From Candidatus Parcubacteria bacterium (lineage in GTDB: Bacteria; Patescibacteriota; Patescibacteriia; CAIXNZ01), in assembly GCA_026395685.1 (NCBI GenBank), contig JAPLYG010000007.1:1-54994 (forward strand): 54,994 nucleotides of DNA, in the 5' to 3' direction. The notes beneath the pieces were generated by a model. It was not told the DNA's origin. It ran no database searches and was given only the letters and a program-made list of their open reading frames with translations. Made by a program: the position numbers and the translations under genes. The stretch's first letter is position 1, and every line of letters begins with the position of its first letter. Below are positions 50,136 to 52,806 of this stretch, one piece after another.

Positions 50136-50164
50136 TTGACTATTATTGCAAAATATGTTAATTT
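50136..50164 (+). promoter_or_regulatory. Promoter of DGR target gene
   Basis: TTGACT-17-TAATTT. Confidence 0.5.
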
Positions 50165-50266
50165 TTAGGCGGTTTCGAACCTTAGGAATTCCCCTTTGAG
50201 GGTAAATAATCCGGTCATGCGACCGGACATAAAGCCGGCGGGCTAAAAACGCAAAGGAGGTTTGTC

Positions 50267-50983
50267 ATGACGACACAAGTTGTCACCGACGAACAGTACG
50301 GCAAGGTAGCCAAGCGTATGCACGAATTGCAGGAGCGTCTGGCTAAGGGAGCAGTTGAATTCCAGCCAGTGATGGATGGTTTGCAGCAGCTGATTGAAGG
50401 AAAAAGCGTGGTCGAGGCGCCAAACCCGGAAAAGAAGCTGGCGGACATGATCGCTGACTGGCAGATTTTTTACCGCGAGGTTTTCGGCCAGGAAGTGGAT
50501 TTTTCCGGGCTGAAAATTCCCGAGAGGAGAAAAGGCTTTGACCGCCTGATCATCCTGGCCCAGGGCATGACACCCCAGCGCCTCTACGACAAGTGCAAGC
50601 AACTTTTCCCGACCTGGAAATGGACAGAGAAAGACCTTGACGAAATCGTGACTTCGGACAGAACGGCAAAAGACGGAGCGTATGCCATCTGGGTTAGAGA
50701 TCGTGTTGAGGCTGATAAGGAGCTAAAAAACCTGTCGGCAAATGCTCTTAAAGAGAAAAAGATCAACGGCATTACCCTGGAAGAAAGGTTCGTTTATGAG
50801 CTCACGTACTTCAGGGAGTGTGGCCGGCATCTGGATGGGCAAAATGTGACACTGTGTTCGGGTTCGCGCTATTCGGATGGGGATGTGCCTAGCGTCGGCT
50901 TCTACACTGACAAGGTCTACGTCGATTACTACAACCCAGACGATGCTAATGCGGGCCTGCGGTCCCGCGCAGTTTCTTGCTAA
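50267..50983 (+). CDS. DGR target protein with C-terminal C-type-lectin-like variable domain
   Basis: C-terminus CSGSRYSDGDVPSVGFYTDKVYVDYYNPDDANAGLRSR coincides with VR; SD aaaggaggtttgtcATG. Confidence 0.92.
   Translation: MTTQVVTDEQYGKVAKRMHELQERLAKGAVEFQPVMDGLQQLIEGKSVVEAPNPEKKLADMIADWQIFYREVFGQEVDFSGLKIPERRKGFDRLIILAQGMTPQRLYDKCKQLFPTWKWTEKDLDEIVTSDRTAKDGAYAIWVRDRVEADKELKNLSANALKEKKINGITLEERFVYELTYFRECGRHLDGQNVTLCSGSRYSDGDVPSVGFYTDKVYVDYYNPDDANAGLRSRAVSC
50857..50972 (+). repeat. DGR variable repeat (VR)
   Basis: 116 bp ungapped match to TR; 17 mismatches, all at TR adenines. Confidence 0.96.
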
Positions 50984-51010
50984 CCCTTGAAGCTTGTACC
51001 TTGTACCCTT

Positions 51011-51050
51011 ATCCCGCACTTTTCGAAAGAAAGTGCGGGATTTTCTTTTT
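51011..51050 (+). terminator. Hairpin/terminator downstream of VR
   Basis: ATCCCGCACTTT-tcgaaag-AAAGTGCGGGATttt. Confidence 0.8.
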
Positions 51051-51084
51051 GTGATATAATTAATATGGCTAATACAATCGGCTT

Positions 51085-51112
51085 CGTCCTGTCGCTCGCG
51101 AGCGACAGGACG
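51085..51112. repeat. 28-bp perfect palindrome
   Basis: CGTCCTGTCGCTCG|CGAGCGACAGGACG between VR and TR. Confidence 0.85.
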
Positions 51113-51285
51113 GGTAGCGATTTGCCTTTTTAAAGAAACTGCTTATCTGATCCTGTGGAGCGGTTCACCTGTCTTGACCAAGGCCAGGCCATGGCGGATT
51201 GGCTCAAAACTTAGCTTCGCAACGCGGAGAAACACAGGCAATTTAGAAATAAAAAGCCGGTGACATAGAAGGGAGCAGATAAAAT

Positions 51286-51401
51286 TTCGGGTTCGCGCTA
51301 TTCAAATGGAAATGTGCCTAACGTCAACTTCAACAATGACAAGGTCAACGTCAATAACTACAACCCAGACAATGCTAATGAAAACCTGCGGTCCCGCGCA
51401 G
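51286..51401 (+). repeat. DGR template repeat (TR)
   Basis: Asn-codon (AAY)-rich copy of VR, SGSRYSNGNVPNVNFNNDKVNVNNYNPDNANENLRSRA. Confidence 0.96.
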
Positions 51402-51426
51402 AAGTTTCTCGGGCAAGAAGTCTTTT

Positions 51427-51795
51427 TTAAGGCTTCTTGTTTGTTAAATATTTCTGCCAGCCAGTCGCCATTTTAGAAACTTCCTGCAGTTGGTTCTGCA
51501 GATCCAGATAAGTTTTATCTGGAATTATCGTCAGTTCATTTTGCACACGGATTAATTGTTTTAAAGTTTCTATCTTGGTTCTTAGCTTAGATACAAATAC
51601 AATTTTATTTTCGCTGCTTGATAGCGCGGCTTCAATGGCTAAATTTAAACAATCAAGACAGGAATCTTCAATCCTTTTGCCAATGCCAAACCGGTCTTGT
51701 TTGGGCAGCTTTTTGTTAATTTTATAAATATTTTTGTATAAATCAGCAATATTATGGATAATAGCAGGCGGGGAGAAAGTTTTAGCAGGGATCAT
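51427..51795 (-). CDS. avd: DGR accessory variability determinant (Avd)-like four-helix protein
   Basis: DRFGIGKRIEDSCLDCLNLAIEAAL…KLRTKIETLKQLIRVQNELTIIPDKTYLDLQNQLQEVSKMATGWQKYL; between TR and RT. Confidence 0.8.
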   Translation of the reverse strand: MIPAKTFSPPAIIHNIADLYKNIYKINKKLPKQDRFGIGKRIEDSCLDCLNLAIEAALSSSENKIVFVSKLRTKIETLKQLIRVQNELTIIPDKTYLDLQNQLQEVSKMATGWQKYLTNKKP

Positions 51796-52806
51796 AATTT
51801 TGAAAATATTATTTCATTAGCCAATCTTTTGATTTCCTGGAAAGAATTTAAACGCGGCAAGACTAAAAATCCTGACGTGCAAAAATTTGCGATGTTTTTA
51901 GAAGATAACTTGTTTGAGCTACATCAGGAATTAGAACAGAAAACTTATAAGCATTCAAATTATACTGATTTTTACCTCAAAGATCCAAAATTGCGCCATA
52001 TCCATAAAGCCCAGGTTAGAGATAGGGTGTTGCATCACGCCATATATCGGATTTTATACCCCATTTTTGATAAGAGTTTTATTTACGACTCTTATTCTTG
52101 TCGCAATAAAAAAGGAACACATAATGCGGTTTTGAGATTAGAAAAGTTTTGCAGAAAAATCAGCAGTAATTATACAAAATCCTGTTATTGCTTGAAGTGT
52201 GATGTCAGGAAATACTTTGACACTATTGATCATAAAATACTTTTTAAGCTGATTAAAACGACAGTTAAGGACGAAAATGCTCTCTGGCTGATTAATGAAA
52301 TTATTTTTAGCTTTTATAAAGGTGGCAATCAGGGCAAAGGCTTGCCACTCGGTAATTTGACTTCCCAGCTTTTTGCCAATATCTATTTGAATGAATTGGA
52401 TAAATTCATTAAGCATCGTCTGAAAGCTAAATTTTACTTACGCTATACTGATGATTTTATTATAGTCCACCAAAATGAAATTTATCTTAAAAGATTAATC
52501 CCTGAAATAAGTGAGTTTTTAAAGCAAGAGCTGAAGTTGGATTTACATCCCCAAAAAGTTACAATCAGAAAAATAGGACAAGGCATAGATTTTCTGGGGT
52601 ATGTGGCTTTACCGCATTACAAAATATTGAGGACGAAAACGAAAAGACGGATTTTAAAAAAGTTAGAATTTCGGCGACAGCAGGCGGTTGCGGGCGAAAT
52701 TGCCGGTCAATCTTTTGAACAGGTCAGACAATCTTATCTTGGAGTTTTGAGCCATTGTTATTCTAACAAATTGCGGCAAGAATTGATGCATGAATTTAGC
52801 ATATAA
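51754..52806 (+). CDS. DGR-type reverse transcriptase
   Basis: RDRVLHHAIYRILYPIFDKSFIYDSYSCRNKKGTHNAVLRL, GLPLGNLTSQLFANIYLNELD, LRYTDDFIIV; exact start uncertain. Confidence 0.95.
   Translation: MDNSRRGESFSRDHNFENIISLANLLISWKEFKRGKTKNPDVQKFAMFLEDNLFELHQELEQKTYKHSNYTDFYLKDPKLRHIHKAQVRDRVLHHAIYRILYPIFDKSFIYDSYSCRNKKGTHNAVLRLEKFCRKISSNYTKSCYCLKCDVRKYFDTIDHKILFKLIKTTVKDENALWLINEIIFSFYKGGNQGKGLPLGNLTSQLFANIYLNELDKFIKHRLKAKFYLRYTDDFIIVHQNEIYLKRLIPEISEFLKQELKLDLHPQKVTIRKIGQGIDFLGYVALPHYKILRTKTKRRILKKLEFRRQQAVAGEIAGQSFEQVRQSYLGVLSHCYSNKLRQELMHEFSI

What the first reader, a model, noticed from the sequence alone, without database searches (positions are those of the whole stretch)
50136..52806. Complete diversity-generating retroelement with clean adenine-only VR/TR divergence
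Seen directly: VR (50857-50972) and TR (51286-51401) align over 116 bp without gaps. I count 17 differences, each at an A in TR (to G, T or C), with no change at TR C, G or T. About 38 TR positions are A. Many variable codons are AAY in TR and become GAT, AGC, GGC, TAC or ACT in VR, plus GAA to GCG. VR forms the last ~39 codons of a C-type-lectin-like protein (CSGSRY…VPSV…DD…LRSR). A DGR-type RT (LPLGNLTSQ, YTDD) lies downstream with an Avd-like protein. Established: A-specific mutagenic retrohoming is the hallmark of DGRs, which are reported as common in CPR bacteria. The biological role of this target is unknown.
Basis: partly seen in the sequence, partly recalled or inferred. Interest (0 to 1): 0.92.

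Follow-up and report, generated by a model that had tools for sequence, protein, structure and literature searches.

The report
Protein-diversifying retroelement with guided template RNA
This tiny bacterium carries a genuine machine that rewrites one stretch of one of its own genes through an error-prone RNA copy, and comparison with about 80 relatives shows that the copied RNA has a previously unlisted folded front end with a short guide matching the place to be rewritten, which could explain how the machine tells its target from its template.

Summary
The DGR is real. VR 50857-50972 and TR 51286-51401 differ at 17 positions, all TR adenines. The RT (SQ motif, YTDD) falls in the DGR clade (100/100). 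Only one VR exists in the genome.

That much is expected for CPR bacteria (Roux clade 2). The unexpected part is the "empty" DNA between target and TR. It encodes a structured RNA (51067-51285): promoter-like -10 box, hairpin, 10-nt guide (51133-51142), and a multi-helix domain whose closing stem ends 3 nt before TR. Covariation is overwhelming (94% of cells paired; slid controls 40-57%). It is not in Rfam 15. A model built from it finds DGRs blind across the phylum, and none of 10 non-CPR DGRs. Avd is antisense in all 79 CPR loci where detected, filling the interval where BPP-1 keeps its 3' spacer.

The guide is complementary to the 3' ends of both VR and TR (own versus swapped z 8.5 and 13.1; replicated on 37 new loci, z 4.4 and 10.5). 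It pairs VR where TR carries mismatching A's. Reading: a permuted template RNA whose guide anchors TR and defines VR. Priming role inferred; activity untested.

The parts
50267..50983 (+). DGR target gene, 238 aa; N-terminal helices, conserved C-terminal domain ending in VR
   Evidence: family of 580 proteins at E<=1e-3, CPR where named, no Pfam/NCBIfam/PHROG match; AF2 pLDDT 92
50857..50972 (+). variable repeat (VR)
   Evidence: 116-nt ungapped alignment to TR, 17/17 mismatches at TR A
50969..50978 (+). IMH-like site GCAGTTTCTT (encodes A-V-S), perfect 10-nt complement of the guide
51011..51041 (+). terminator hairpin of the target gene (13 bp then TTTCTTTTT)
51055..51060 (+). -10-like TATAAT of the template RNA; a similar box lies just upstream of GGCTAATA in most relatives
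   Evidence: seen directly
51067..51126 (+). 5' hairpin of the template RNA (GGCTAATAC-AATCG ... CGATT-TGCC)
   Evidence: base stem covaries AATCG/CGATT, AACCG/CGGTT, AACCA/TGGTT, AATTG/CAATT, AGCTG/CAGTT
51133..51142 (+). guide AAGAAACTGC (core GAAACTGC at 51135-51142), equal to the bottom strand of the VR IMH-like site
51143..51282 (+). multi-helix RNA domain: P1 5' arm 51143-51153 with 3' arm 51272-51282 closing hairpins P2 to P4 directly before TR
   Evidence: covariance model R1 93.5 bits, E 5e-19; pair counts
51286..51401 (+). template repeat (TR)
51401..51410 (+). IMH*-like site GAAGTTTCTC; pairs with the guide except a G-A mismatch at the A that VR lacks
51414..51445 (+). hairpin CAAGAAGTC/GGCTTCTTG followed by TTTGTT, probable end of the template RNA; holds the avd stop codon in its loop
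   Evidence: fold z -3.8; type-A median z -3.9
51427..51795 (-). avd, 122 aa, antisense to TR and RT
   Evidence: Pfam bAvd 1.6e-16, NCBIfam DivGenRetAVD 7e-17 (below cutoff), PHROG Avd 2.7e-20
51754..52806 (+). DGR reverse transcriptase, 350 aa (GNLTSQ, YTDD)

Best explanation
This is a diversity-generating retroelement of the CPR clade whose template RNA is permuted relative to the Bordetella BPP-1 prototype. The RNA starts near 51067, folds into a hairpin plus a multi-helix domain that lies 5' of TR, runs through TR and ends at a hairpin just after it. A bipartite guide between the two folded parts pairs with the 3' end of TR in cis, its upstream half with the TR 3' end and flank. Its last ~6 nt are complementary to the 3' end of VR but mismatch TR at positions where TR usually has an A. 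RT-Avd copies TR with errors at adenines, and the product replaces VR up to the IMH. SHOWN by computation: the DGR; the covarying 5' domain; antisense avd; guide complementarity to TR end and VR end beyond chance, with VR-specific positions. INFERRED: the RNA extent; that the domain recruits RT-Avd; that the guide positions or primes cDNA synthesis so that the cDNA begins as an extension of a strand already matching VR; that this gives TR-to-VR directionality; that the element is active.
For: Adenine-only divergence. RT in DGR clade, CPR subclade 97/98. 5' domain: 94.2% of cells paired, 118 double-change cells against 34 shuffled, slid controls 40-57%. Model R1 finds loci outside its training set: L042 7e-23, type-B loci to 4e-9; 26 hits in 23 of 389 phylum genomes, 25 with RT, Avd or target alongside; none in 10 non-CPR DGRs. 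Avd antisense in 79 of 79 CPR loci where detected, sense in the compared non-CPR DGRs. Guide: VR end z 8.5, TR end z 13.1, controls 1.7 and -1.3; replicate of 37 loci z 4.4 and 10.5, controls null. Guide position 2 (type A) pairs VR in 86% and TR in 27%; position 4 (type B) 96% and 57%. At 46 sites where TR is an unpaired A and VR differs, VR pairs the guide in 40. Compensatory pair L023/L020.
Against: No transcript, cDNA or mutagenesis data. Registers were fitted to pairing, so per-position percentages lean towards it; the swapped-locus controls were scored the same way, but related loci share guides. In the window the guide's upstream half pairs VR (10 bp) better than TR, unlike type-B loci. 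Some loci pair imperfectly (L009, L087, L067). The two key CPR DGR papers (Paul 2017, Wu 2018) are not in the library, so earlier notice of the antisense avd or of the element cannot be excluded.
Confidence: 0.8

Rival explanations
1. Ordinary BPP-1-like DGR: the template RNA reads through TR into the antisense of avd, which acts as the 3' spacer and primes; the 5' element is only a regulatory leader or stability element.
For: Biochemistry on BPP-1 places the recruiting and priming spacer 3' of TR (PMC12875486, PMC8867640). The TR-to-RT distance is long enough, about 350-450 nt.
Against: The interval is filled by antisense avd, with a strong hairpin within tens of nt of TR in most type-A loci. 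The strongly covarying structure lies 5' of TR, and its closing stem abuts TR. The guide pairs with IMH and IMH*.
Confidence: 0.1
2. The guide acts only in cis as an RNA helix closing the TR loop; complementarity to VR is a by-product of TR/VR homology.
For: TR-end pairing has the highest z (13.1, 10.5) and in type B extends 8 nt into the TR flank but not into the VR flank (z 9.0 against -1.9).
Against: At sites where TR is an unpaired A and VR differs, VR pairs the guide in 40 of 46. Type-A guides pair into the VR flank (z 4.4), including compensatory L023/L020.
Confidence: 0.25
3. The guide recognises the target DNA directly (like EBS-IBS pairing of group II introns) by annealing to the VR top strand, rather than priming cDNA.
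For: Perfect complementarity to the VR end in the window (10 bp); group II introns are RT relatives that recognise DNA by RNA pairing (established knowledge).
Against: Type-B VR pairing is only about 6 bp, short for a DNA-target search; TR anchoring points to a role in cDNA initiation.
Confidence: 0.3
4. Inactive relic: the parts are preserved but no longer diversify the target.
For: No population data; VR has lost one codon relative to TR.
Against: RT, Avd, RNA domain, guide and IMH are all intact; no internal stop in the RT; adenine-only divergence with no background mismatches in 116 nt suggests recent homing.
Confidence: 0.07

Closest known systems
Bordetella phage BPP-1 DGR (mtd-avd-TR-brt)
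   Same: Adenine-mutagenic RT of the same clade, Avd, TR/VR, VR at the 3' end of the target ORF, IMH differing from IMH*
   Different: BPP-1 has avd in sense 5' of TR and a structured spacer 3' of TR (TR end to RT 160 nt in L127); here avd is antisense 3' of TR, the structured domain is 5' of TR, and a guide complementary to the IMH is present
CPR-restricted DGR clade 2 of Roux et al. 2021 (PMC8144416)
   Same: CPR host; targets without recognisable or transmembrane domains
   Different: The text of that paper does not contain the word Avd or orientation, and the passages found do not describe the template RNA's structure
Retron msr-msd RNA
   Same: A folded RNA part lies 5' of the reverse-transcribed part, and the 5' and 3' regions pair in cis
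   Different: DGR-clade RT, Avd, adenine mutagenesis and homing into VR; no retron family match at cutoff
Group II intron EBS-IBS target recognition
   Same: Short RNA guide complementary to target DNA next to the integration site (analogy only)
   Different: No ribozyme match in Rfam; RT lies outside the group II outgroup

Membership tests
Diversity-generating retroelement | TR/VR pair with mismatches only at TR adenines | tested here: met
   17/17
Diversity-generating retroelement | RT in the DGR clade with SQ instead of SP motif | tested here: met
   Clade 100/100; GNLTSQ against GGxxSP in outgroups
Diversity-generating retroelement | Avd accessory protein | tested here: met
   Pfam bAvd 1.6e-16, PHROG 2.7e-20; encoded antisense
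Diversity-generating retroelement | VR at the 3' end of a target ORF, with IMH differing from IMH* | tested here: met
   GCAGTTTCTT in VR, GAAGTTTCTC in TR
Diversity-generating retroelement | active mutagenic retrohoming | not testable with these tools
   no reads or conspecific strains held
BPP-1-type template RNA | structured spacer between TR and RT, 3' of TR, with sense avd upstream | tested here: not met
   interval is antisense avd with a hairpin from 51414; structured domain is 5' of TR
BPP-1-type target site | DNA hairpin or cruciform a few bp after VR | tested here: inconclusive
   13-bp terminator hairpin starts 39 bp after VR; small inverted repeat inside the VR end
C-type-lectin-fold target | CLec fold displaying VR | tested here: inconclusive
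   C-type lectins top Foldseek but E above 1; variable residues 209, 211, 213 and 218, 220 alternate on two strands
Rfam RNA family | match to a described family | tested here: not met
   only chance-level matches

The most novel reading that the evidence does not exclude
CPR DGRs use a guide-primed mechanism: the 3' end of the guide, held on the TR 3' end, is the point from which cDNA grows, so the product is one strand already complementary to VR (IMH plus diversified repeat). The guide, not the protein, then dictates target choice and TR-to-VR directionality, and changing guide plus IMH together would redirect the element to another gene.
Probability: 0.35. Interest if true: 0.9.

Novelty: new variant of a known kind. 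Interest (0 to 1): 0.75.

Why it matters
How a DGR tells the variable copy from the template has been assigned to the IMH difference since BPP-1 (PMC3240598) without a pairing partner for it. Here a partner can be named nucleotide by nucleotide and tested by compensatory mutation. The 5' domain also offers a compact template RNA with the recognition part separated from the diversified part, and a covariance model that finds CPR DGRs without protein searches. It suggests that the RT-Avd machine works with at least two differently ordered RNAs.

Tried and rejected
Rfam at gathering and E-value thresholds: nothing. IMG/VR scan with the RT: no relatives. Target in Pfam, NCBIfam, PHROGs, PDB by sequence: nothing. 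Foldseek of two models: no significant match. Remote-target test of the guide in multi-target genomes: G398 (seven matches to the target family) has no detectable RT or convincing RNA element, and G401's element is type B and not the partner of its two type-A targets, so it neither supports nor refutes. A first idea that the 3' end of antisense avd doubles as spacer was dropped when the hairpin after TR and the 5' domain were seen. A shared leader upstream of target genes in relatives was looked for and not found. A second R1 hit in the window (38858-38976, minus, E 0.014) is taken as chance.

Full report
OBSERVATION. VR (50857-50972) and TR (51286-51401) align over 116 nt with 17 differences, all at TR adenines (12 to G, 3 to T, 2 to C); hypergeometric chance 2.8e-10. 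The similarity resumes after one missing codon in VR (TR R-S-R-A-E-V-S-R, VR R-S-R-A-V-S-C). The target ORF (50267-50983, 238 aa) ends with VR. The genome (1.24 Mb, 23 contigs; the window is a whole contig) holds no other copy of VR, TR or target.

PROTEINS. RT 51754-52806: RVT_1 E 1.7e-24, best PDB chain 8ub7 E 1.2e-38 (to my knowledge the BPP-1 DGR RT). In a tree with 15 CPR relatives, 10 DGR RTs of phages and plasmids and 4 non-DGR RTs, it lies in the DGR clade (100/100) and in a CPR clade (97/98); all DGR RTs have the SQ motif, the outgroups SP. Avd: 51427-51795 minus strand, bAvd E 1.6e-16, PHROG Avd 2.7e-20. The target belongs to a family of at least 580 proteins, from CPR bacteria where a source names them, without any library match. 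Its AlphaFold models are confident (pLDDT 92; domain 96), and the best Foldseek matches are C-type lectins, but E is above 1. TR AAY codons at residues 209, 211, 213 and 218, 220 alternate on two predicted strands, as expected for one exposed face (inference).

ARCHITECTURE. In relatives fetched by target and by RT, the order target, TR, antisense avd, RT is nearly universal: avd is antisense in 48 of 48 non-duplicate loci of the first set and 31 of 31 of the second where it was detected, with none in sense (the 48 is my count from the listing). In the 10 non-CPR DGRs fetched, avd or a small ORF in its place is in sense, upstream of or reaching into the RT gene. BPP-1's TR RNA is followed by a structured spacer that recruits RT-Avd and primes (PMC12875486; PMC8867640). 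Here that interval is avd in antisense, and a hairpin follows TR closely (window 51414-51439, fold z -3.8; type-A median z -3.9).

THE RNA ELEMENT. Upstream of TR, relatives share a promoter-like -10 box, a 5' hairpin, a short conserved word and a multi-helix domain whose closing stem P1 ends just before TR. On 22 sequences of the window's type (type A), helices P1, P2 and P4 have 94.2% of cells paired against 74.1% after shuffling; 21 of 24 pairs show double changes; sliding the partner by 1-3 columns drops pairing to 40-57%. The covariance model R1 scores the window 93.5 bits. It also finds loci not used to build it, among them a divergent group (type B) with E down to 4e-9. On the combined alignment, which is fitted to the model, 95.5% of cells are paired, with 300 double-change cells against 82. 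In 389 genomes of the phylum it hits 23; 25 of the 26 places hold RT, Avd or target sequence, and the remaining one (L116) shows what looks by eye like a TR/VR repeat. It has no hit in 10 non-CPR DGRs and no Rfam match.

THE GUIDE. The word before P1 is AAGAAACTGC in the window (51133-51142). Its exact complement GCAGTTTCTT is the end of VR and its flank (50969-50978); chance expectation for the word in the whole window is 0.2. Across 47 loci, duplex scores of the guide with its own VR end and own TR end exceed swapped partners (z 8.5 and 13.1, none of 5000 permutations), with null controls. On 37 further loci with an automatic guide definition the result repeats (z 4.4 and 10.5, controls null). 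The two halves behave differently: positions 1-6 from the guide's 3' end pair VR in most loci, while TR fails at one position, often where it carries an A (type A, position 2: VR 86%, TR 27%; type B, position 4: 96% and 57%). Positions 7-14 in type B pair the TR flank (67-86%) and mostly not VR. Of 46 sites where TR is an unpaired A and VR differs, VR pairs the guide in 40. L023 and L020 differ by a compensatory change (TGGGAAACTGC/GCAGTTTCCCA and TGGGGAACTGC/GCAGTTCCCCA). The conserved 'AVS' or 'VVS' tail of the target family is therefore best read as the IMH, a nucleic-acid signal (inference).

MECHANISM. Shown: the DGR, the covarying 5' RNA domain, the antisense avd and the guide complementarity. 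Inferred: the RNA runs from about 51067 to about 51445; RT-Avd binds the 5' domain; the guide holds the 3' end of TR; cDNA starts at or next to the guide, so that the product matches VR and not TR. The guide equals the VR bottom strand at the IMH, which fits a primer or primer-mimic role. Whether it primes, anneals to VR DNA, or only anchors TR is open.

COMPARISON AND NOVELTY. It is a DGR by all testable defining features and belongs with the CPR-only clade described by Roux et al. 2021 (PMC8144416). It fails the BPP-1-type template-RNA layout. I found no description of this RNA or guide in the searchable literature, but Paul 2017 and Wu 2018 are not held. I therefore rate it a new variant of a known kind.

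LIMITS. No transcripts, reads or conspecific strains; guide registers were fitted to pairing; related loci are not independent, though swapped-partner tests and the replicate reduce that concern; the type A/B split is mine; in the first set the guide of about a dozen loci was set by hand, in the replicate none.

Noticed in passing
37600-41200: Island of 54% G+C in a 40% G+C window, with two cysteine-rich orphan proteins (37760-38527, 38712-39518) lacking family matches; looks foreign or unusually composed.
   Followed up: partly
50267-50983: The target gene is 52% G+C while RT and avd are 34-35%, so target and machinery differ in composition.
   Followed up: no
51754-51795: RT and avd start codons overlap divergently by 42 bp; the same overlap exists in L008 (71% RT identity), so each gene's upstream region lies inside the other.
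   Followed up: partly
L140, L146, L151, L154, L157 (genome G398): A draft CPR genome with seven matches to this target family; those read share nearly the same IMH and flank, but no RT or convincing RNA element is found in the assembly.
   Followed up: partly
L148, L152, L155, L158, L161, L163, L164 (genome G399): Several target paralogues, some in tandem, all ending in GTAGTTTCTT plus a similar flank: one IMH for many targets; three full-length and one split DGR-type RT matches in the same genome.
   Followed up: partly
L025, L027, L028: CPR-type targets in MAGs labelled Nitrospinota/Nitrospinae; binning contamination or transfer.
   Followed up: no
50200-50266: The target gene leader holds a perfect hairpin CCGGTCATGCGACCGG before the ribosome-binding site; not seen in the relatives read.
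   Followed up: partly
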